Source of the DNA: an uncultured Spirochaetaceae bacterium
Lineage (GTDB): Bacteria > Spirochaetota > Spirochaetia > Sphaerochaetales > Sphaerochaetaceae
Reading direction: 5' to 3'
NCBI GenBank assembly: GCA_944388955.1
Contig: CALXKJ010000001.1
Span: forward strand, 1-64,000
Length of the DNA: 64,000 nt
Positions 30,793-46,048 of the stretch are shown here, one piece after another; position 1 is the first letter of the stretch, and every line of letters begins with the position of its first letter. Below the pieces are notes generated by a model. It saw nothing but the letters and a program-made list of their open reading frames with translations. It did no database searches and was not told where the DNA came from. The translations under genes and the position numbers were made by a program.

Positions 30793-31059
30793 ATGCTCGG
30801 AGCTACAAGGGATTACGCCATAAGGCCGGGGACTATGGTCCTGGAGAAGAGGGTGCGGCGGGCATCCGCGGATGTGCGGCATCTTGCCTCATTCATACCT
30901 GTATATCCGAAGGAGATAGGGCAGGCAGAGCTCGCGAGGAAGGCGGGGGTGACAGAGAGAAGGCTCAGGTGCCTCATCCCGGCAGTGAGCGATTCCTATC
31001 TCCTCTGCGAGGATGACGGAAGGTATTCACTCCTGAGGAGGGGCCGCCGTGTGGATTGA
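30793..31059 (+). CDS. 88-aa winged-helix early protein
   Basis: MLGATRDYAIRPGTM... with a helix-turn-helix in GQAELARKAGVTERRLRCLI and a wing (LLCEDDGRYSLL). It overlaps the transposase start by 11 bp. DNA binding is inferred; no named family. Confidence 0.6.
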   Translation: MLGATRDYAIRPGTMVLEKRVRRASADVRHLASFIPVYPKEIGQAELARKAGVTERRLRCLIPAVSDSYLLCEDDGRYSLLRRGRRVD

Positions 31060-33157
31060 TGTCAGGGAGCTGTCAGATGCTGTCGGTGTCACTTCGAGGG
31101 CAGTGCAGCTGAAGATACAGAAAGGCGAGCTCGTCGCAAGGAGGAAGGACGGAAGGAGCTATGAGGTGGATTCGGACTCCGTCCCTCCTGAATGGAGGCC
31201 GCTTGTCGGGAAGCTGCATCCTGCCGCAAGGCCGGCTGCGGCTCCAGCCCTATCGGCATCCGCGGAATCCGCGCTCGGAAGGAAGCTGTCCGAGAAGGAG
31301 ATGAGGAGGCCTGAGATAGCGCATTATGCGGAGAGTCTCTCGGAGGTTCCGGAATCGATGAGGGTGTCTCTGACGGCGGGGTATTTCGGGATTTCCGAGT
31401 CCACCGTGAGAAGGTGCATCCGAAGCATCTCCGGCTTCGGCATCATCTCCGGCGAAAGGCGCCCGGTGGAGCCAAGGGCATGGGAGCCGGAGGCCATAGC
31501 ATTCCTTCGCTCATATTACCTCCAGCTCATGAAGGAGAGGAACATAGACAGCAAGGAAGCTGCATGGAAGGCGGTGAGGAGCGAGGCGCAGAAGCGGAAC
31601 TGGAGGATAGGCTCGCGCTCTTCGGCGTTCAGGATGCTGAAGGATATCCCGGGGATAATCACCGGCTATGCCACGGGCGGCAGCAGGGCGCTCGACAACT
31701 TCTTCTATATAAAGCGCGACTGGGGCTCTCTCGAGCCGGCGGCAGTCCTTATCGGGGACCAGCATATCGCGGACTTCTGGGTCGTCGATGACAGGGATGC
31801 GGAGAATCCTTATTACTTCAGGCCCACGTTCTATGTATGGGAGGATGCGGCAACGAGATGCATCGCAGGGCTCGCGGTCGATGAGGGCTACAGTTCCGAG
31901 ACCGTGCTGAACGCGCTCTACATGGCGATAAGCCGCTTCGGCTTCTTCGGGGCGACATACAACGACAACGGCACATCGGAGTGCTCGAATGCCGTAGTGA
32001 CGGTCATAGACGAGATCATCAGGCTCTCGGGAGGAAGGAGCAGGATGCTCGATATCTCCGAGCTCTATAAGACATCCGATGGCCGTTATGCCGTCGAGGA
32101 CGCTGACGGGAATATCGTGGATATGGCCCCGGACGAGAAGGCGTGGAGGAACAGGCATCGGAGGATATACGCACAGGTGAAGAACGCGAAGGCGAAGCCT
32201 ATCGAGAGGCTCTTCTCGACCCTTGAGATGAAGATGGCTGAGCGCGGCATCCCCGGCCATGTCGTTACTCCGGGATGCCCTGCAGACCAGGAAGAGAAGG
32301 AATCGATGGTCCTTGAGAGGCAGAAGAGGAACGGCGAGATACTCACGCTGGAGGAGTTCGTAAGGGAGATGATAGCCACGATCTCCGAGTATGAATCCAC
32401 CAGGCATTCGTCGCTCGGGATGTCACCTCTGGAGAAGGTGAACGAATGGATAGGGAAGGGCTGGAAGCCTGTCTATCCTGAGAGCCGCGCTGACCTTGAC
32501 TTCATATTCCTCACGAGGAAGAAGGCGAGGATAAGGAAGGGACGCGTGACGGTAGATGGCGTTGATTTCATAGGCGAGGACCTGAGGAATGAGAACGGCC
32601 AGCTGCTCGATGTGGGGCTGGTCCTCCACGAGGGCGAGTCCGTTGAGGTCAGATACAGTGCTGTCGACATGTCCCGGGCCTATGCGGTCTTCCCGGATGC
32701 TGCGGCAGGAAGCAGGATAAGGGCCCTGAGGGCTGTTGAGGCGATAGACATGCTCGATGAGAAGAAGCTCTCGGAGGCTATCAGCTGGAAGCGCAGATGC
32801 ATGCGCACGGTGAAGGAGAGCTTTGCAGCACTGTCGTCTCCGTACTGCTTCAGGGATGATGGGAAGAAGGAGCTTACCGAGGTCGAGAAGGCAGACAGGG
32901 CGCTTGAAGAGGCTGCTGAGGATAAGGAGGGAACCGCAGAGCCGGAGCCATGCCCGAGGGCTCCGAGGATAAGGCCGGCGCGTCCGCTCTTCAGCTCATC
33001 ATTCGAGCGCTTCAGATGGTGCTGCGACATGATAATCAGCGATTTCGGGCTTGATGAGAATGACAGGGATTTCTGCGCCAGGTACAGGCTCGGCGAGGAA
33101 TACCAGGAGAACGAGGAATACTGGGAGGCATATATGAAGGCAGGAGGTGCTGTATGA
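31049..33157 (+). CDS. MuA-like transposase
   Basis: 702 aa from GTG 31049-31051, preceded by GAGGAGGGG. An N-terminal MerR-like HTH (VRELSDAVGVTSRAVQLKIQ) and DNA-binding domains precede an integrase core with D237 (GDQHIADFW), D306 (YNDNGTSE) and E386 (KPIERLFSTLE). A Mu-type C-terminal beta-barrel and a tail likely contacting the B protein follow. It drives insertion and replicative transposition using the end repeats at 453-496 and 36742-36804. Start and end overlap neighbours. Confidence 0.93.
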   Translation: MWIDVRELSDAVGVTSRAVQLKIQKGELVARRKDGRSYEVDSDSVPPEWRPLVGKLHPAARPAAAPALSASAESALGRKLSEKEMRRPEIAHYAESLSEVPESMRVSLTAGYFGISESTVRRCIRSISGFGIISGERRPVEPRAWEPEAIAFLRSYYLQLMKERNIDSKEAAWKAVRSEAQKRNWRIGSRSSAFRMLKDIPGIITGYATGGSRALDNFFYIKRDWGSLEPAAVLIGDQHIADFWVVDDRDAENPYYFRPTFYVWEDAATRCIAGLAVDEGYSSETVLNALYMAISRFGFFGATYNDNGTSECSNAVVTVIDEIIRLSGGRSRMLDISELYKTSDGRYAVEDADGNIVDMAPDEKAWRNRHRRIYAQVKNAKAKPIERLFSTLEMKMAERGIPGHVVTPGCPADQEEKESMVLERQKRNGEILTLEEFVREMIATISEYESTRHSSLGMSPLEKVNEWIGKGWKPVYPESRADLDFIFLTRKKARIRKGRVTVDGVDFIGEDLRNENGQLLDVGLVLHEGESVEVRYSAVDMSRAYAVFPDAAAGSRIRALRAVEAIDMLDEKKLSEAISWKRRCMRTVKESFAALSSPYCFRDDGKKELTEVEKADRALEEAAEDKEGTAEPEPCPRAPRIRPARPLFSSSFERFRWCCDMIISDFGLDENDRDFCARYRLGEEYQENEEYWEAYMKAGGAV

Positions 33158-34068
33158 ATATGGATCTCAATCAGCTTATGAGGATCACAGGGCTGACGCA
33201 GACGGATATCAGCAACAAGATGGGGTGGTCAAGAACCCAGGTGTCGCTGATTGCGTCAGGGAAGTACGAGAACTGGCAGGGAAAGGTCGCTGAGGTGTAC
33301 AGATACCTTTCGGCCAATGGCTACATCCCCGGCGAGTATGCCGAGGAGGGGGAGTCTCCGGCGGTATCGATAAGCATCGACACGGGCGCCATAATCAGGA
33401 CGGACAACTACAATTCGGTGTTCAGCCTTGCTGATGGGCTTATCGCTCCTGAGTCCCTTCTGAATGCATCCATCGGCATGGTTCTGGGGAAGGCCGGATA
33501 CGGCAAGACGACTGCCGTGAAGCGCTATGCGGTAGAGCATATGGATGCCGTCTATGTCCTCTATATGGGATTTGCCAGGACATCGCTCTTCAGGCGCATT
33601 GCGGAGGAGATGATTGGGCGCTCAGTGGGGACGTATTACGGGAATATCAGGCTCATAGAGGAGGCAACGTCCGTATGCAGGAAGCTCATCATCATCGATG
33701 AGGCCGATAGGGTCCCGCTTCCCATCCTTGAGGACCTCAGGACGCTCAATGAGAATGCGGGTGTCCCGCTTCTCCTTGTCGGAGAGGAAAGCCTTGCCTC
33801 CACCGTAAGGAAGGCCGACAGGATTGAGTCGAGAATCAGGAAGCCCGTTATCGCGTTCAAACCGATAGACACTGCTACTGTTATCGCTCTCTACAAGAAG
33901 GCCTGTGGCCTTTCAATTGATGTGGATATTGCGAAGAAGCTTATCTCCATGTGCGGGCGTGATTTCCGCGTCGCTGTGAACGATATGCAGCATATCGTCT
34001 CGATTATGAACCAGAACGGTGTTCCCGAGATTACGAAGGAGGTCATCGATGCCGCTAGGCGCAGCTGA
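33154..34068 (+). CDS. MuB-like AAA+ target-selection ATPase
   Basis: 304 aa. The N-terminal HTH (LTQTDISNKMGWSRTQVSLI) is followed by an AAA+ core with Walker A GKAGYGKTT, Walker B LIIIDEADR and a sensor region LLLVGEESL. This is the standard MuB plan: it activates the transposase and chooses target DNA. ATGA overlap with the transposase gene. Confidence 0.92.
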   Translation: MNMDLNQLMRITGLTQTDISNKMGWSRTQVSLIASGKYENWQGKVAEVYRYLSANGYIPGEYAEEGESPAVSISIDTGAIIRTDNYNSVFSLADGLIAPESLLNASIGMVLGKAGYGKTTAVKRYAVEHMDAVYVLYMGFARTSLFRRIAEEMIGRSVGTYYGNIRLIEEATSVCRKLIIIDEADRVPLPILEDLRTLNENAGVPLLLVGEESLASTVRKADRIESRIRKPVIAFKPIDTATVIALYKKACGLSIDVDIAKKLISMCGRDFRVAVNDMQHIVSIMNQNGVPEITKEVIDAARRS

Positions 34069-36741: not shown

Positions 36742-36809
36742 TTGTCAAAATGAGTGGGATTTCTTGTCAAAACGTGAGATTTTATTGTCAAAAATTTTGG
36801 GATTGTACA
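36742..36809. repeat. prophage right end with three transposase-binding-like repeats
   Basis: TTGTCAAAA-N-GGGATT units lie at 36742-36761, 36764-36781 and 36785-36804. They are inverted relative to the two left-end copies. The terminus is TGTACAATCCC read inward. Two 10-bp ACCACG-containing repeats (near 36700-36735) lie further in and may be extra sites. Confidence 0.75.
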
Positions 36810-37566: not shown

Positions 37567-40500
37567 ATGAGCTTTAGCACGATAATCAATAAGTACAGAA
37601 CCCTGTCATTCAGCAAGGCTGATCAGGGTAACCGCTTTGAACGCCTTATGAAGGCTTTTCTTGTCACTGCTCCTATATATAAAGGCGATAGAATACAGGA
37701 TGTATGGCTTTGGAGCGAATTCCCTTCAAAGGGTGATTTTGGTACAGGTCATGACACAGGCATTGATCTTGTAGCGAGGACTGAATCAAGCGAGTACTGG
37801 GCGATACAGTGCAAATGCTATGGTGAAAATACTCAGATAGATAAATCCGCTGTAGATACATTTATCACGACATCCGCAAGGTCATTCAATGATGTGAATG
37901 AATATGGGAAGACTGTTCGTTTCTCAAGAAGAATCTGGTTTGATACATCAGGTAAGGGATTCTCCCAGCATGCCGAGGATTCAATCAAGAATCAGAATCC
38001 TCCTGTCATGCGTATGGGACTGTATGATCTCGCTGCTGCTGATGTCGATTGGGATAAGCTTGATGAAGGATTGTTCGGAGCAGATGCTGAGTCTGCAAAG
38101 TATTCTCCAAGACCGCATCAGCAGAAAGCAATTGATCTAACGCATGAGTATTTCAAGAACCATGACAGAGGCAAGCTCATCATGGCCTGTGGAACAGGTA
38201 AGACTTATACTTCTCTGAAGATAGCAGAGAAAGAAACATCATCTAATTTTACCCCCCCCCAGATACTTTTTCTAGCTCCGTCAATTGCTCTTGTAGGGCA
38301 GACTCTAAAGGAATGGTCAGCTCAGGCAGAGAAGCCGATACATGGCATTTGTATATGTTCTGATCCAAAGGTATCTCAGAAGGTATCGGATGAAGATGAA
38401 ATCGGAGAATCAGTAGTTGATCTCGCTCTTCCTGCTTCGACATCCTTCAATGAGATTGAGAATCAGATCAGACAGGCACGGTTCAATCAGAAACAGGATG
38501 GAGGCATGCTTGTTGTCTTCTCGACATATCAATCGATAGATGTAATCCATGAAGTGCAACATAGATTCTATGATGGACTTGTTTTTGATCTCTGTGTATG
38601 TGATGAAGCGCATAGGACAACAGGAGTAACAAGAAAGGATGAAGATGCATCTGCCTTTGTGAAGGTACATGCTGCAGAGTTCATACGATCAAAGAAACGC
38701 TTGTATATGACAGCTACACCGAGATTGTATAGTGCGGAAAATCAGAAGAAAGCAGCAGAAAGCGAAGCTGTCGTATGGTCTATGGATGATCCTGCCACAT
38801 ATGGAGAGGAAATCTACAGAATTGGATTTGGTGAAGCTGTAAAGCTCGGATTGCTCTCGGACTATAAGGTACTTGTCCTGACTCTAAATGAAGACGAGAT
38901 GTCTACAGCTCTTCAGAATGAGATAGCACAGGATGATTCAGAGATACCGACAGATGATTCATTGAAGCTGATTGGCTGCATAAATGCATTGTCCAAGATA
39001 ACGAAAGATACAGCTCTGCTGAATGAGGTTGATCCTGGACTGATGCATAATGCAATAGCTTTCTGTCAGAACATAAAGATATCAAAGAAGACAGTTAAGA
39101 TGATGGAAACATGCCGTGATGCCTATTATAGGACATTGAATGAAGAAGAACGGTCGAGGATAGTTTCTATCAATGCAGATCATGTCGATGGCAGCATGGG
39201 TGCGACAGAGCGATCAAAGAAGCTACAGTGGCTGAAGGATGTCGATAGGGAATCCAGCCAGTGCAATGTGTTGATGAACGTCCGCTGTCTTTCTGAAGGT
39301 GTTGATGTTCCGTCTCTGGATGCTGTTTTGTTCCTATCGGCAAGAAACAGCCAGATTGATGTAGTTCAGTCTGTTGGCCGTGTCATGAGGAAAGCAGAAG
39401 GAAAGAGATATGGATATATCATCATACCCGTTGTTATTCCTTCTGATGTCGAGCCGGAGAAAGCTCTTGATGACAATAAGAGGTTTGCTGTTGTATGGAC
39501 GGTTCTTCAAGCTCTTAGAGCGCATGATGACAGGTTCAATGCGATAGTCAATAAGATAGAACTTAATAAGAAACGGCCTACACAAATCCTTGTTGGTGGA
39601 GTTGCTTCTATTCGTGAAGAGGACTCTGGTGACAATGGAATGGAAGATGCGTTCAGGAATAAGGAAGCTAAGCAGCTGATGCTCCAGTTCGGAGAGATTC
39701 AGAACGCAGTCTATTCAAAGCTTGTAAAGAAGGTTGGTGATAGGCGTTATTGGGAGCAGTGGGCAGCTGATGTTGCCCAGATAGCTGAGCGTCATATAAC
39801 ACATATCAAGAAGCTGATATCTGTTGAAGGCAGTCAGGCACAGAAAGCCTTTGATAGGTATCTGAAAGGTCTTCGGAAGAATATTAATCCATCGGTTACG
39901 GAAGATGATGCTGTTGAGATGCTTGCTCAGCACTTCATAACACAGCCTGTATTCGAAGCATTGTTTGAAGGTTATTCATTTGTACAGAACAATGCGATGT
40001 CGAAGTCGATGCAGGGTATGGTGAAGATCCTCAATGAACAGACTCCGAAGGAAGACAATGAGAAGCTTGAACGATTCTATGAGTCCGTAAGGGAGCGAGC
40101 CAAGCATATTGATAATGCCGAGGCAAAGCAGAAAGTTATTGTTGAGCTTTATGATAAGTTCTTCAAGACAGCTTTTCCAAAGACTGTTGAGAAGCTTGGC
40201 ATTGTCTATACTCCTGTCGAGGTAGTGGACTTTATCATCAATAGCGTTGAAGATGTGATGCAAAAGGAATTTGGACGATCGCTCTCTGATGAGAATGTAC
40301 ATATCCTTGATCCATTCACAGGAACAGGCACATTTATTGTCCGACTTCTCCAGAGTGGGATAATAAAGCCAGAGGACATGGCAAGGAAGTATAAGAATGA
40401 GCTTCATGCCTGTGAGATAGTCCTTCTTGCTTACTACATAGCTTCCATCAATATTGAGAATACCTATCATGATTTCATCGCAGAGCAGATCAGAAAGAAG

Positions 40501-42531
40501 AATCAGCCTGAAGAGAAAGAAATAGATGATTATGGCTATGAGGTTCAGAATGCTGCTTATGATGAGGCTTCTTATGAAGCTAAGGTAGCCTATGAGCCAT
40601 TTGAAGGAATCTGTCTGACTGATACCTTCCAGATGGGAGAAGATAATAATGAGCTTCTTGAAGAGGTATTCCCTCAAAACTCAAAGAGAGTGAATAAACT
40701 CAAGAAGACGCCAATAACAGTTATTATCGGAAATCCTCCGTATTCAATAGGACAGAAATCTGTTTCTGATAATGCAGAAAATGAACATTATCTGAATCTA
40801 GAAAATCAGATTGAAAAGCAATATGTGAAGGAGTCAACAGCAAATTTGCATAAGGCTGTGTATGATTCATACATCAAAGCATTCCGATGGAGTACTGATA
40901 GGATTGGAGATAATAACGGAATAATCGGTTTTGTTTCCAATGCTGGCTGGCTTGATGGCAATGCAATGGATGGCATGAGGAAATGCTTTGAAAGAGAGTT
41001 CTCGAATATCCATGTATTCAGCCTGCGTGGTAATTGCAGAACTTCTGGTGAGCTTAGGAGAAAAGAAGGGGGTAATGTTTTTGGACTTGGCAGCAGAACA
41101 CCAATTGCTATAACAATTCTTGTTAAAAGAAAGGGCTTTAATGGCAAAGCCAAAATAATGTACAAGGCTGTTGAGGATTATCTTACAAGAGAAGATAAGT
41201 TGAAGCTCTGTGCTGAATACCGTTCTGTTCTTGATAAGAAGTTCAAGACAACCCTATTGTCTCCTGATGAATATGGTGGATGGATTCGAAAGAAAAAGGA
41301 GAAATTTGAGATATTTATTCCACTGCAGCCAGAAAAGAAAGGAATAGGCAATAATTCTTTCTTTGATATGATTTCTTTAGGTATCAGTTCTAATCGAGAT
41401 GCTTGGGTATATAATAGCTCAATCGAAGCCTTGACAAATAATATGCAGAAGACAATTGCATATTACAATGATTTATGCGAGTTGTGGTCATCTGAGCATA
41501 ATGGAACATTCGATCATTTTATAGAAAATAAAAAGGATAGAACAAATATAGCTTGGACAGATACTTTGACTAGAGATGCAACAGCAGGAAGAAAATATGA
41601 ATTTGATTCATCTTGTATCGTTTGTAGTTCATACCGTCCATTCTTTTATCAGAACTTTTATTATTCAAAGCAATGGAATCATAGACAGTATACGCAACAA
41701 AAAATATATCCATCTGCGATTAGAAAGAAAGATAATCTTGTAGTGTGCGTTAGTGGAATTGGAGGATCAAAGCCTTTCTGTAGCCATATTTCTGATTTCA
41801 TCCCATCGTTAGATTACTTAGAAAAAACTCAGTGTTTTCCTTTATACTGGTATGAAGAAATCAAGCTTGATCAACATGACTTATTTTCAGGAGAAACTTC
41901 TCAGTATATAAAACATGACGGCATAACAGATTTTATCCTTAATCAGGCTCAGCAGAAATATGGACCGAGAGTAACTAAGGAAGACATATTCTACTATGTC
42001 TATGGCATACTTCATTCAAAGAGCTATATTGAGAAGTTTGCAGATGATCTCAAGATGCAGCTTCCTCGGCTTCCTCTTGTAACAGAACCCCAGAAGTTCT
42101 GGGATTTCAGCAAGGCAGGAAGAGAGCTTGCTGAACTTCATCTGAACTATGAAAAAGTTCCTGCATATCCAGATGCAATCATTGAAGGAGATAGAGGAAA
42201 TTATACAGTTGTTCAGATGAAACATCCGAAGAAAGGACGAGAAGAACAGCTCGATACCATAATTTACAATAGCGATATTGTAGTCAGAAATATTCCTTTA
42301 AAAGCGTATGAGTTCGTGGTTAACGGAAAGAGTGCAATAGATTGGATTATTGAACGGTATGTGGATAAAACTGATTCTAAAACAGGTATCAGGAATAATG
42401 CTAATGATTGGGGAATAGAACATGGTAACCCGAGGTATATTCTCGATCTGCTGCTTAGTGTTATCAATGTCAGCTGCCAGACTGTTGATATTGTTAACAA
42501 TCTTCCTGATGTTGATTGGGATAAGGAATAA
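37567..42531 (+). CDS. type ISP restriction-modification enzyme (nuclease + helicase + N6-adenine methylase + specificity)
   Basis: 1654 aa, close to the LlaGI/LlaBIII family. In order: a Mrr-like PD-(D/E)XK nuclease (TGIDLVAR ... QCKCY, about 60-88); superfamily 2 helicase with Walker A CGTGKT (about 209), DEAH (about 346) and TATPRLY; a coupler; a gamma-type methylase with FTGTGTF (about 917) and NPPY (about 1056); and a C-terminal recognition domain. One protein therefore methylates and cuts. GGAG lies upstream of the ATG. A C9 tract at 38252-38260 in the helicase could switch it on and off by slippage; the present length is in frame. Base composition is lower in GC than the prophage. Confidence 0.93.
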   Translation: MSFSTIINKYRTLSFSKADQGNRFERLMKAFLVTAPIYKGDRIQDVWLWSEFPSKGDFGTGHDTGIDLVARTESSEYWAIQCKCYGENTQIDKSAVDTFITTSARSFNDVNEYGKTVRFSRRIWFDTSGKGFSQHAEDSIKNQNPPVMRMGLYDLAAADVDWDKLDEGLFGADAESAKYSPRPHQQKAIDLTHEYFKNHDRGKLIMACGTGKTYTSLKIAEKETSSNFTPPQILFLAPSIALVGQTLKEWSAQAEKPIHGICICSDPKVSQKVSDEDEIGESVVDLALPASTSFNEIENQIRQARFNQKQDGGMLVVFSTYQSIDVIHEVQHRFYDGLVFDLCVCDEAHRTTGVTRKDEDASAFVKVHAAEFIRSKKRLYMTATPRLYSAENQKKAAESEAVVWSMDDPATYGEEIYRIGFGEAVKLGLLSDYKVLVLTLNEDEMSTALQNEIAQDDSEIPTDDSLKLIGCINALSKITKDTALLNEVDPGLMHNAIAFCQNIKISKKTVKMMETCRDAYYRTLNEEERSRIVSINADHVDGSMGATERSKKLQWLKDVDRESSQCNVLMNVRCLSEGVDVPSLDAVLFLSARNSQIDVVQSVGRVMRKAEGKRYGYIIIPVVIPSDVEPEKALDDNKRFAVVWTVLQALRAHDDRFNAIVNKIELNKKRPTQILVGGVASIREEDSGDNGMEDAFRNKEAKQLMLQFGEIQNAVYSKLVKKVGDRRYWEQWAADVAQIAERHITHIKKLISVEGSQAQKAFDRYLKGLRKNINPSVTEDDAVEMLAQHFITQPVFEALFEGYSFVQNNAMSKSMQGMVKILNEQTPKEDNEKLERFYESVRERAKHIDNAEAKQKVIVELYDKFFKTAFPKTVEKLGIVYTPVEVVDFIINSVEDVMQKEFGRSLSDENVHILDPFTGTGTFIVRLLQSGIIKPEDMARKYKNELHACEIVLLAYYIASINIENTYHDFIAEQIRKKNQPEEKEIDDYGYEVQNAAYDEASYEAKVAYEPFEGICLTDTFQMGEDNNELLEEVFPQNSKRVNKLKKTPITVIIGNPPYSIGQKSVSDNAENEHYLNLENQIEKQYVKESTANLHKAVYDSYIKAFRWSTDRIGDNNGIIGFVSNAGWLDGNAMDGMRKCFEREFSNIHVFSLRGNCRTSGELRRKEGGNVFGLGSRTPIAITILVKRKGFNGKAKIMYKAVEDYLTREDKLKLCAEYRSVLDKKFKTTLLSPDEYGGWIRKKKEKFEIFIPLQPEKKGIGNNSFFDMISLGISSNRDAWVYNSSIEALTNNMQKTIAYYNDLCELWSSEHNGTFDHFIENKKDRTNIAWTDTLTRDATAGRKYEFDSSCIVCSSYRPFFYQNFYYSKQWNHRQYTQQKIYPSAIRKKDNLVVCVSGIGGSKPFCSHISDFIPSLDYLEKTQCFPLYWYEEIKLDQHDLFSGETSQYIKHDGITDFILNQAQQKYGPRVTKEDIFYYVYGILHSKSYIEKFADDLKMQLPRLPLVTEPQKFWDFSKAGRELAELHLNYEKVPAYPDAIIEGDRGNYTVVQMKHPKKGREEQLDTIIYNSDIVVRNIPLKAYEFVVNGKSAIDWIIERYVDKTDSKTGIRNNANDWGIEHGNPRYILDLLLSVINVSCQTVDIVNNLPDVDWDKE
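38252..38260 (+). repeat. C9 homopolymer inside the type ISP coding sequence
   Basis: Nine C bases read ACC CCC CCC CAG (Thr-Pro-Pro-Gln) about 20 codons after Walker A. Gain or loss of one base would truncate the enzyme to about 240 residues, before the methylase. Confidence 0.85.
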
Positions 42532-43037
42532 TGGAACAATTTATTTTTGTTGAAATTATATCCACTATAATAGCCATTACTGCTCTGATTATATCGATGA
42601 TTCAATTACGGATGACTTTCAGAGCAGATGTTGTAATTCGTGTGCATTATTATTTTGATTGCACGATGCTGGAAATAGTTAATATTGGTACAATCGGGGC
42701 TTCGAATATCGTTGTGGAATTTTCTGAAAATGATGTTACAAAGATTGCTAAGCTTGTCAGAAATCCCGATATAAAGAAGCAGGTAGAATGTTTATCAAAA
42801 TTGAAAGAACACAAACTTCAGTTGCTCCCACAAGAAATTAAACCTTATGTTCTTTATCTTTTAGAAGATAGGGAATCTTTTGGAAAAGCACCGATTCTAT
42901 TACATGGTGTGGTACATTACAAATCATTTTTAGGCATAGCAAGGAAAAAGAATGTTATCATTGATGTAAGCGGTACAGGTAGTGCTATTTATGAGAAATG
43001 GCCTACCGATAAAGATGACGCAGAGGATACAAAATGA
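42531..43037 (+). CDS. membrane-anchored protein beside the type ISP gene
   Basis: 168 aa; its ATG overlaps the TAA of the restriction gene (TAATG), so the two are co-expressed. There is an N-terminal membrane segment (about 4-27, FVEIISTIIAITALIISMIQ) and a beta-rich soluble domain of unknown type. A partner role in the restriction system is inferred from coupling only. Confidence 0.6.
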   Translation: MEQFIFVEIISTIIAITALIISMIQLRMTFRADVVIRVHYYFDCTMLEIVNIGTIGASNIVVEFSENDVTKIAKLVRNPDIKKQVECLSKLKEHKLQLLPQEIKPYVLYLLEDRESFGKAPILLHGVVHYKSFLGIARKKNVIIDVSGTGSAIYEKWPTDKDDAEDTK

Positions 43038-43287: not shown

Positions 43288-43482
43288 ATGGAAGAGCAGG
43301 AGAAGAAGAGCTGGGGAGGCGCCAGGAAAGGCGCAGGAAGGCCGAAGGGCATCAGGAAGCCATATGAGCATATATGTGCTTCAGTTCCAGCTGAATATGT
43401 GGACAAGCTCAAGGCCTTAGCCGCAAGGGAAGGGCTGACGGTCGGGAAGCTTTTCCAGATAATGATTGATGAGAGGGCGTGA
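43288..43482 (+). CDS. ribbon-helix-helix-like protein, copy 1 (WGGARKGAGRPKG motif)
   Basis: 64 aa from ATG 43288, with AGGAGG upstream; the longer frame from 43198 is out of context. The N-terminus has the WGGARKGAGRPKG motif, and the rest (VPAEYVDKLKALAAREGLTVGKLFQIMIDER) fits a ribbon-helix-helix fold. Paralogous to 45854-46048, and its 3' end recurs at 49565-49680. Probably a DNA-binding regulator of the adjoining small peptide. Confidence 0.65.
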   Translation: MEEQEKKSWGGARKGAGRPKGIRKPYEHICASVPAEYVDKLKALAAREGLTVGKLFQIMIDERA

Positions 43483-43496
43483 TGAGCGCCCTCTAT

Positions 43497-44360
43497 TTAA
43501 TCAAGATCGAGGAAGCCCTGACCTTGTTCCTTCTCTATCTGCTCCTTCGTCTTCGGAGGATAGAATACCCCGATGATGGAAAAAGGCTGGCCAAAGCCCT
43601 TCATGTGGTCTTCTTTTCTTGTCCCGAGGAAGAAGTAAACATCATTCTTATCAATGAATGACATATATTTTGCGACGGTATCAGCCTTTGCCTTCTCGTG
43701 ACTCCCGCCTTTCTGCCGTATCTTCCTATACAGCATGTAAGCTTCCCAGTCCAGCACTGATAATGCATGCACTTTGCCTGTAGAGTCCTGAAATCTGTAT
43801 CTGAGGTTTATACGAGGAGGCTCGGCCTGAATGAAATCCCTATCATCGTCTGAGAAATTGAGATCGGGCTGGTAATTCATCAGTATTTCCTTCTGTTTTG
43901 ATAGGTTTTCCTGTATGTCTTTTTCCCTGATATCGGAAGCAGTGCAGCCGATGATCCTTGTCGGCTTGAATACAGCCAAGGATGTCCTTATCGGTCTGCA
44001 GCCAGCCTCTTCCAGAAGCTTGTTGAAATCCGTATAGATCTTCTGCCCGTTATCAAGGCATATCTTCTTTCTTTCATCCCAGTTGCTGATCACATCTGAG
44101 ATTATCTCAATCGAATCATGGTTGCATTTCCTTGATTCCGGCCTGATGTCGCCACTGGGTGGGAATGTGTCAAATCTTACCCATTGATATTTTCTATAGC
44201 TCTGGTTCTTTGATAATTTGCGGAGCGGAACAGGATATACTCTTATCCAGTTCCCGTTTCTGTCAAAGCCCGCTGTGCATGATGTCTCTATATAGCTCTT
44301 GGATGGAGTGGGTGCTGTTATCGCTGTTATGAATATATCCATCGGTACAGGATCGTTCAT
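43497..44360 (-). CDS. partner protein of the DUF488 gene, unknown function
   Basis: 287 aa. The region DIFITAITAPTPSKSYIETSC and GNWIRVYPVPLRKLSKNQSYRKYQWV suggests a conserved two-gene partner of DUF488 proteins in accessory islands. Its start overlaps the DUF488 stop by 4 bp. An RNA- or nucleotide-related role is possible; no catalytic motif is certain. Confidence 0.55.
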   Translation of the reverse strand: MNDPVPMDIFITAITAPTPSKSYIETSCTAGFDRNGNWIRVYPVPLRKLSKNQSYRKYQWVRFDTFPPSGDIRPESRKCNHDSIEIISDVISNWDERKKICLDNGQKIYTDFNKLLEEAGCRPIRTSLAVFKPTRIIGCTASDIREKDIQENLSKQKEILMNYQPDLNFSDDDRDFIQAEPPRINLRYRFQDSTGKVHALSVLDWEAYMLYRKIRQKGGSHEKAKADTVAKYMSFIDKNDVYFFLGTRKEDHMKGFGQPFSIIGVFYPPKTKEQIEKEQGQGFLDLD

Positions 44361-45256
44361 ATATTTATCACTCCATGGTCAAGTGTTGTGTGCCTGCTGC
44401 AGAATGCCGCAAGCCTTGACCTGTGGCAATCCTGAGGATTCCTCTCATAGCAGAGGAATGCCACGCTGCTGCTAGCAAGCAGGTCTCCTATCTTATAAGC
44501 GAATGATACCTGCCATGGAAGCGTATGCTCTTCATACCAGTCGAAAAGCTCATTCCTTCTTCCTTCCGGTAGAAGCTCGTTTCTCTTTTCCGATTCGATG
44601 CCGACTTCAGGGCAGTGCATATACCTGATTCCGGCTTCATCCATTGCTCTGGCCAGATTCGATTTCGAGAATTCCCTCCTCATGCTGAAGGCGTTCTTCC
44701 TGACATCGACAAGAACCTTTATATTCCTGCACATGAGATTCCTTATTACATCGTCTATAGACCGGCCTTCATAGCCTATGGTGTATATCGTCCTGGGGTA
44801 GGCTTCAATCTTCCTCTTTATGTTCACAAGCCCTTGATAGAATGAATCCGTAAGATCCAGAGTGTTTATGATCTCGCTTCTGATGGCATAGAACGGCTTC
44901 AGTTCGTAGCTGATCTCAGCAAGCTCCTTTTCGGGAAGATTCCCGTATCTTCTGTATGTTTCTCTTATCTGACACTCCGTCGCATAATCGACAGCAAAGG
45001 AATCATGGGCAATGCCACTGGCTAATGAATACATGCCATCCGAACTGTCGAGGAATCCTGAAGACGCTAGTGCATGATAGTCATTGCTGAGGGTGAGAGA
45101 ATAGCATCCTCTGATATTCGGGAAGAACTGATATGGTGCTTTCGATTGGTCATCAAGCGACTGCGTGTAAAGAAAGAGTGTCTTCTGTATCTGCATGGCG
45201 GATGCAGTACCAAGAAGCATGATGAAATTGAGTGCTACCTTTCTCCTGTTATACAT
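44357..45256 (-). CDS. DUF488 domain protein
   Basis: 299 aa from ATG 45254-45256 (a TTG start at 45274 is possible). A helical N-terminal region (about 1-150) is followed by the DUF488 domain: TIYTIGYEGRSIDDVI, VLVDVRKNAFSMRREF and the C-terminal LCYERNPQDCHRSRLA with a conserved Cys-His. It forms an operon with the gene at 43497. The pair lies among restriction and prophage genes, so a defence role is plausible but unproven. Confidence 0.75.
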   Translation of the reverse strand: MYNRRKVALNFIMLLGTASAMQIQKTLFLYTQSLDDQSKAPYQFFPNIRGCYSLTLSNDYHALASSGFLDSSDGMYSLASGIAHDSFAVDYATECQIRETYRRYGNLPEKELAEISYELKPFYAIRSEIINTLDLTDSFYQGLVNIKRKIEAYPRTIYTIGYEGRSIDDVIRNLMCRNIKVLVDVRKNAFSMRREFSKSNLARAMDEAGIRYMHCPEVGIESEKRNELLPEGRRNELFDWYEEHTLPWQVSFAYKIGDLLASSSVAFLCYERNPQDCHRSRLAAFCSRHTTLDHGVINI

Positions 45257-45428
45257 ACTCAAGCCCTGTATCAATTGTATATGAGCAACGCCCTGACGTA
45301 TACGCTATATATAGTATTTCAAGTATGTTTTTCATACTGATATCAAGCAAAATTATCACTTGATTTTGAATAAACCATTGAATAAAAATCAAGAAAATGC
45401 TAATATATGGATGTAAGGAGGTGATGGC

Positions 45429-45685: not shown

Positions 45686-45696
45686 GGGGGGGGGGG
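45686..45696. repeat. G11 homopolymer
   Basis: Eleven G bases lie between the third and fourth tiny peptide genes, 46 bp before the latter. It is intergenic, so slippage would change promoter spacing or mRNA folding rather than a reading frame. Confidence 0.8.
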
Positions 45697-45853: not shown

Positions 45854-46048
45854 ATGGAAGAGAACGAAAAGAAAGGCTGGGGAGGGGCAAGGAAGGGTGC
45901 AGGAAGGCCAAAGGGCATCAAGAAGCCGTATGCACCGCTATGCTGCTCCCTGCCGGTTGAGTACGTGGGAAGGCTGAAGGCGATGGCTGAGAGGGAAGGG
46001 CTATCAATGAGCCGCATGATCCAGAAGATGATTGACGAGAGGGCGTGA
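45854..46048 (+). CDS. ribbon-helix-helix-like protein, copy 2
   Basis: 64 aa from ATG 45854. About 70 percent identical by eye to 43288-43482, with the same WGGARKGAGRPKG motif and a VEYVGRLKAMAEREGLS helix region. It ends IDERA, like copy 1. Probable DNA-binding partner of the tiny peptides upstream. Confidence 0.65.
   Translation: MEENEKKGWGGARKGAGRPKGIKKPYAPLCCSLPVEYVGRLKAMAEREGLSMSRMIQKMIDERA

What the first reader, a model, noticed from the sequence alone, without database searches (positions are those of the whole stretch)
37567..42531. Phase-variable type ISP restriction enzyme through a C9 tract
Nine C bases lie in frame just after the helicase Walker A motif. A one-base change truncates the protein before the methylase, so restriction and methylation would switch together. 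C or G tracts in R-M genes are a known route to phase variation (phasevarions), but known examples are mainly type I and III.
Basis: partly seen in the sequence, partly recalled or inferred. Interest (0 to 1): 0.75.

Follow-up and report, generated by a model that had tools for sequence, protein, structure and literature searches.

The report
Slippage-switched single-chain restriction enzyme
A gut spirochaete carries a one-piece restriction-and-methylation enzyme whose gene contains a run of nine Cs that can probably gain or lose a base and switch the enzyme on or off, and a related species has a run of ten Gs at the same spot that leaves its copy switched off.

Summary
ORF 37567-42531 is a complete type ISP restriction-modification enzyme, and nine Cs (38252-38260) lie in frame (Thr-Pro-Pro-Gln, residues 229-232), 16 residues after Walker A. 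The run is beyond chance: 5 of 20,000 synonymous-codon shuffles reach nine. One base more or less truncates the protein at 265 or 235 residues, before most of the helicase and all of the coupler, methylase and specificity domains.

Comparative evidence favours a contingency switch. The only other ortholog found in the genus (G018, ~76%) has G10, not C, in the same loop. That tract is out of frame and is the gene's sole lesion. Sister-genus orthologs have no tract there. Two Desulfovibrionaceae ISP genes carry (AG)n or (GA)n in other loops, one out of frame. The genome has 21 G/C tracts of nine or more, many in promoter spacers upstream of lipoprotein genes. G018 also has G9 inside a type I hsdS.

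Length variation within a population was not observed: no reads or second strain were available. Phase-variable type I, IIG and III systems are known. I found no report for type ISP in the open-access library, so I call this a new variant of a known kind. Whether OFF cells lose methylation is open.

The parts
37567..42531 (+). type ISP restriction-modification enzyme, 1654 aa, frame open (ON) with the tract at C9
37669..38067 (+). N-terminal Mrr-family nuclease domain (residues 35-167; motif D67...QCK intact); all that remains whole in a frameshifted product
   Evidence: PF13156 E=1.9e-39; motif check
38191..38205 (+). Walker A GTGKT of the SF2 helicase-like motor (residues 209-213)
   Evidence: PF04851 E=1.1e-23
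38252..38260 (+). C9 tract in ACC CCC CCC CAG (T229-P-P-Q232), in a loop of variable length between the Walker A helix and the next strand; proposed slippage switch (9 or 12 = ON; 7, 8, 10, 11 = OFF)
   Evidence: alignment A1; AlphaFold2 model (helix 43-54, coil 55-62, strand 63-68 of the fragment)
39748..40122 (+). ISP coupler domain (residues 728-852), lost when out of frame
   Evidence: PF22240 E=8.4e-51
40309..41001 (+). gamma adenine methyltransferase part (motif I DPFTGTGTF at residue 915, NPPY at 1056), lost when out of frame
   Evidence: PF07669, motif check
41359..42450 (+). C-terminal target-recognition domain (residues 1265-1628), most divergent part against G018 (57% identity versus 80-89% in coupler, helicase and methylase)
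   Evidence: PF18135 E=5.1e-105
42531..43037 (+). small gene overlapping the ISP stop codon; conserved beside the ISP gene in two sister-genus loci (54-55% identity), absent beside the G018 copy; role unknown

Best explanation
The gene encodes a single-polypeptide type ISP restriction-modification enzyme under a slipped-strand contingency switch. During replication the C9 run occasionally gains or loses a base. With 9 or 12 Cs the full 1654/1655-aa nuclease-motor-coupler-methylase-specificity protein is made (ON, the assembled state). With other lengths translation stops 3 to 34 codons after the tract and no functional enzyme is made (OFF). A clonal population should therefore contain cells with and without this barrier to phage and foreign DNA, and with and without its methylation mark. 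The tract sits in a loop that tolerates inserted residues, so whole-codon changes should be harmless. Shown here: enzyme identity, tract, frame consequences, loop position, a tract at the same position and out of frame in a relative, and similar repeats in distant ISP genes. Inferred: that the tract slips at high rate, that cells switch reversibly, and that the population benefits.
For: Type ISP architecture with intact nuclease, Walker A, DEAH, methylase motif I and NPPY motifs. C9 is improbable under synonymous shuffling (5 of 20,000) and G/C run lengths have a gap between 6 and 9. The G018 ortholog, the only other one found in the genus among 139 genomes of the family, has G10 in the same codons, different bases, out of frame, with no other stop or frameshift in about 1638 codons and strong purifying selection on both sides (dN/dS about 0.09 and 0.10). 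The orthologs in sister genera (L059 = G589, L061 = G363, G402) have no tract there. Desulfovibrionaceae G432 has (AG)21 out of frame at residue ~305 and G522 has (GA)n at residue ~676. The genome carries 21 distinct G/C tracts of nine or more, and G018 has an in-frame G9 inside a three-domain HsdS. In another spirochaete, T. pallidum, a poly-G that is mostly nine long varies from 7 to 11 within isolates (PMC7864442).
Against: No length variant of this tract was seen; each species is represented by one assembly, and a viral-contig match to the flank was unrelated DNA. Nine bases is near the lower end of tracts known to switch. The G10 frameshift in G018 comes from a metagenome assembly and could be a base-calling or consensus error. 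No mismatch-repair or slippage-rate data are available.
Confidence: 0.8

Rival explanations
1. Chance or mutational leftover: the tract is a tolerated homopolymer in an unconstrained loop, with no selected switching. Length changes are simply deleterious mutations.
For: The loop is variable in length and composition in all homologs. Most ISP genes examined have no such tract. No within-species length variant was observed.
Against: C9 occurs in only 5 of 20,000 synonymous shuffles. The only other ortholog found in the genus independently has a G10 in the same loop; with 15 distinct tracts of nine or more in its 2.2 Mb a random tract would fall within about 20 bp of that site with a chance of roughly 1e-4 (my estimate). 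Other ISP genes carry dinucleotide arrays of 16-21 units.
Confidence: 0.12
2. Frame correction by slippage of RNA polymerase or ribosomes on the homopolymer, so that some full-length enzyme is made whatever the DNA length, and the tract sets the amount instead of an on/off state.
For: Homopolymers of nine or more can cause transcriptional slippage (general knowledge). The G018 gene stays under strong purifying selection although its frame is broken, and all its motifs are intact.
Against: The same conservation is expected if the OFF state is recent and reversible. Slippage on C or G runs is less documented than on A/T runs (general knowledge).
Confidence: 0.06
3. Restriction alone switches and methylation persists: a frameshift at the tract removes the nuclease-motor part, while translation restarting downstream makes a methylase-plus-specificity protein.
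For: H. pylori HP0669, the C-terminal piece of a frameshifted ISP system, is an active methylase by itself (PMC3936762). In G018 an ATG 13 bases before the G10 tract opens the 1420-aa downstream frame in the OFF state. In the window, Met314 has AGGA seven bases upstream.
Against: The Met314 start is not conserved in G018 or G402, and no good ribosome-binding site precedes the G018 ATG.
Confidence: 0.15
4. Assembly or sequencing error: the tract length in the metagenome-derived assemblies is wrong and the G018 frame is really intact.
For: Both genomes are multi-contig assemblies whose reads I could not inspect. Poly-G runs can be sequencing artefacts: I dismissed a G17 at a contig end in L080 for that reason.
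Against: An error could change the length by one but not create a nine- or ten-base tract embedded in matching coding sequence in two independent assemblies. The window copy is in frame.
Confidence: 0.05

Closest known systems
Type ISP enzymes LlaGI and LlaBIII (Lactococcus; PDB 5ffj, 4xqk)
   Same: Same domain order: Mrr nuclease, SF2 motor, coupler, methylase, C-terminal recognition domain; matched over nearly the whole length
   Different: The aligned loop in LlaBIII reads SKDKDGPFKVLYLV and LlaBIII is not described as phase-variable in the papers found
Phase-variable type IIG enzyme Cj0031 of Campylobacter jejuni (PMC4889913) and JHP1272/HP1353-1354 of Helicobacter pylori (PMC3936762)
   Same: One polypeptide with restriction, methylation and specificity, switched by a homopolymer in the coding region; the first H. 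pylori repeat is also a C run encoding prolines (PPPP)
   Different: Type IIG enzymes cut near the site without a translocating motor. Here the tract lies in an ATP-dependent motor domain of a type ISP enzyme
H. pylori type ISP locus HP0667-HP0668-HP0669 (PMC3936762)
   Same: Type ISP gene silenced by frameshift; repair restores methylation
   Different: The authors state that the frameshifts are not due to sequence repeats, so it is not a slippage switch
Phase-variable type I (hsdM/hsdS) and type III (mod) systems, phasevarions
   Same: Repeat-driven on/off switching of a methyltransferase
   Different: Separate subunits, so restriction and modification can be uncoupled; no regulon has been shown here

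Membership tests
Type ISP restriction-modification enzymes | Single polypeptide in the order Mrr nuclease, SF2 ATPase, coupler, gamma methylase, C-terminal recognition domain | tested here: met
   PF13156, PF04851/PF00271, PF22240, PF07669, PF18135 in that order; 4xqk matched over residues 2-970 and 1007-1650
Type ISP restriction-modification enzymes | Catalytic motifs intact: PD-QxK type nuclease, Walker A, DEAH, DPFTGTGTF, NPPY | tested here: met
Type ISP restriction-modification enzymes | ATP-dependent translocation and cleavage between head-to-head sites; methylation of one strand | not testable with these tools
   needs biochemistry
Phase-variable genes with simple sequence repeats | Repeat tract longer than chance in the coding region, one-unit change causing truncation | tested here: met
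Phase-variable genes with simple sequence repeats | Different tract lengths, in and out of frame, in related genomes with the gene otherwise intact | tested here: inconclusive
   met between species (C9 in frame here, G10 out of frame in G018); within-species variation could not be looked at
Phase-variable genes with simple sequence repeats | High-rate reversible length change in a clonal population | not testable with these tools
   no reads available
Phasevarion | Switching of methylation changes expression of a set of genes | not testable with these tools
   needs ON and OFF transcriptomes and methylomes

The most novel reading that the evidence does not exclude
The tract position separates restriction from protection: OFF frames lose the nuclease and motor, but a restarted C-terminal protein keeps methylating, so switching ON never meets an unmethylated genome. 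This would be a safe on/off design for a single-chain restriction enzyme, which otherwise risks cutting its own chromosome whenever it switches ON.
Probability: 0.13. Interest if true: 0.75.

Novelty: new variant of a known kind. Interest (0 to 1): 0.52.

Why it matters
Slippage-driven switching would extend to ATP-dependent single-polypeptide (type ISP) enzymes, in uncultured gut spirochaetes and, by the Desulfovibrionaceae examples, in a second phylum. Because nuclease, motor and methylase are one chain, an OFF-to-ON switch produces nuclease and methylase at the same moment in a cell that may be unmethylated, so the question of how self-cutting is avoided becomes directly testable. Methylation-based strain typing and phage-resistance studies in these bacteria would also have to expect mixed populations.

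Tried and rejected
A 20-base flank of the tract searched in viral contigs gave one hit (L209) with no similarity to the window beyond those bases, so it gave no length comparison. G215 showed a G9 at a break in an ISP-like fragment, but the locus is a degraded remnant without the N-terminal part and is not counted. A G17 in L080 lies at a contig end in poor-looking sequence and was dismissed as a likely artefact. Frameshifts in L088, L090, L094, L095 and L096 have no repeat and look like ordinary decay. A conserved internal start for a methylase-only product was sought and not found. The most relevant SSR survey of type I systems (FASEB J 2020) is not held, and subscription papers are largely missing, so the literature novelty is limited to the open-access library.

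Full report
What was checked. The ORF at 37567-42531 is 1654 codons long and has no internal stop. The run of Cs at 38252-38260 is exactly nine bases and lies in ACC CCC CCC CAG, residues T229-Q232. Walker A (GTGKT) is at residues 209-213. The protein is a type ISP enzyme: Mrr_cat_2, ResIII/Helicase_C, ISP_coupler, Eco57I and Type_ISP_C follow one another in that order. LlaBIII (4xqk) and LlaGI (5ffj) are the closest solved structures. The nuclease, motor and methylase motifs are intact.

More than chance. In the window, C or G runs reach length 6 once, then nothing until this C9 and a G11 at 45686. Permuting synonymous codons within the gene gives a run of nine in 5 of 20,000 shuffles. The gene rarely uses CCC (4 of 53 Pro codons) or ACC (6 of 80 Thr codons).

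Consequence of slippage. Computed products are 264, 235, 265, 236 and 1655 residues for 7, 8, 10, 11 and 12 Cs. One base either way therefore removes most of the motor and all of the coupler, methylase and recognition domains. The tract lies in a loop between the Walker A helix and the following strand. The alignment shows that this loop varies in length and composition across homologs while its neighbours are invariant, and the AlphaFold2 model of the motor domain (mean pLDDT 78) places it in coil. Adding whole codons should be tolerated (inference).

Relatives. Among 139 genomes of the family, six have an ISP match. Within the genus only the window genome and G018 have one. The G018 gene (73% and 77% amino-acid identity before and after the tract) has ten Gs at the homologous codons. 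The tract puts the two halves in different frames; nine or twelve Gs would join them as LRG(G)GVLFLAPS, matching the family (my reading). Apart from this, its roughly 1638 aligned codons contain no stop, all motifs are intact, and dN/dS against the window gene is about 0.09 before and 0.10 after the tract. This is what an OFF phase of a maintained gene should look like, although dS above 1.6 means the ratio mostly reflects older history. The sister-genus orthologs L059 (= G589), L061 (= G363) and G402 have no tract there. C in one species and G in the other, in the same loop, points to separate origins.

Beyond the phylum. A Desulfovibrionaceae ISP gene (L067 = G432) has (AG)21 at residue ~305, encoding ...KKEK(ER)n..., and the frame changes there; the rest is intact. 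In a second genome (G522) the gene is split by the assembly at a (GA)n array at residue ~676, with the N-terminal half ending in GERERER on one contig and the C-terminal half following (GA)n on another. Most ISP genes examined have no such repeat, so this is a recurrent add-on and not a family trait.

Genomic setting. The window genome has 21 distinct G/C tracts of nine or more. Many lie in TTGACA-N-(G)8-11-TAnnnT arrangements directly upstream of genes, most of them for lipoproteins. G018 has an in-frame G9 between specificity domains of a three-domain HsdS. So the genus uses poly-G/poly-C tracts widely, including in another R-M gene. In T. pallidum a poly-G that is mostly nine long ranges from 7 to 11 within isolates and controls expression (PMC7864442), so tracts of this length do slip in a spirochaete. 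The ISP gene begins about 750 bp beyond the probable right end of a Mu-like prophage and next to other candidate defence genes.

Known versus new. Repeat-driven switching is established for type I and III systems, and for type IIG in C. jejuni (PMC4889913) and H. pylori (PMC3936762). The H. pylori ISP locus is frameshifted, but explicitly not by repeats (PMC3936762). Five open-access papers contain both 'type ISP' and 'phase-variable'; in the four I looked into the passages found do not describe a phase-variable ISP enzyme, and the fifth (PMC6346686, a staphylococcal phage study) I did not open. I therefore rate this a new variant of a known kind, with the reservation that subscription literature was not searched.

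What remains open. No population-level length variation was seen. Whether OFF cells lose methylation is uncertain, because an ISP C-terminal piece can methylate alone (HP0669, PMC3936762). Candidate restart codons exist (Met314 here; an ATG just before the tract in G018) but are not conserved. A phasevarion is not supported or excluded.

Noticed in passing
whole genome G000 (e.g. C1:70572-70598, outside the window; loci L005, L012, L016, L017, L020, L024, L025, L026) and the genus: Family of promoters with a poly-G run filling the spacer between TTGACA and a TAnnnT -10 hexamer (spacer 17-20, mostly 19 with G9), mostly upstream of lipoproteins (MKK...LFAFTAC leader; BspA-type LRR and repeat-rich proteins), also a DUF6884 gene; a PapD-like chaperone gene (L018) lies behind a G10 without a clear -35. 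Found in 30 of 40 genus genomes searched, about 180 sites against 1 for the reversed control. Looks like a genus-wide set of phase-variable surface-protein promoters, like T. pallidum tp0126 but far larger; near-identical copies differ in tract length.
   Followed up: partly
L192 (G018:C4 near 26699): Type I HsdS with three specificity domains and an in-frame G9 between the second and third: candidate poly-G specificity switch.
   Followed up: partly
L022 (G000:C20:17401-17410): G10 in frame in a gene resembling capsule-assembly protein Wzi (E=4e-5): second coding-region tract of the genome, likely another on/off outer-membrane gene.
   Followed up: partly
45686-45696: G11 tract between tiny hydrophobic ORFs (45429, 45595, 45742; 26-32 aa, each with a ribosome-binding site), followed by an RHH-type ORF at 45854 that is 76% identical in DNA to a copy at 43288; no TTGACA promoter. 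Function unknown.
   Followed up: partly
about 450-36809: Mu-like transposable prophage: MuA-like transposase 31049-33157, MuB-like ATPase 33154-34068, head and tail genes 4546-26900; right end marked by three TTGTCAAAA repeats (36742, 36764, 36785) and TGTACA near 36809. Left end not established.
   Followed up: partly
43497-45274: Gene pair matching PADLOC candidate defence system PDC-M19A/B (DUF488 protein plus partner), close to the ISP gene: a small defence island.
   Followed up: no
G000 contigs C3, C6, C29 (L007, L014, L028): Three contig ends share at least 50 bases (CCTGTGAAAAGGCCC...GGGTTAGTTCAA) immediately before G9-TA: a repeat ending exactly at poly-G tracts, possibly a mobile or recombining element.
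   Followed up: no
L182 and L179 (G522); G433, G434: Several gut Desulfovibrionaceae genomes carry many (AG)n arrays and assemblies break or misjoin at them; likely many phase-variable loci.
   Followed up: no
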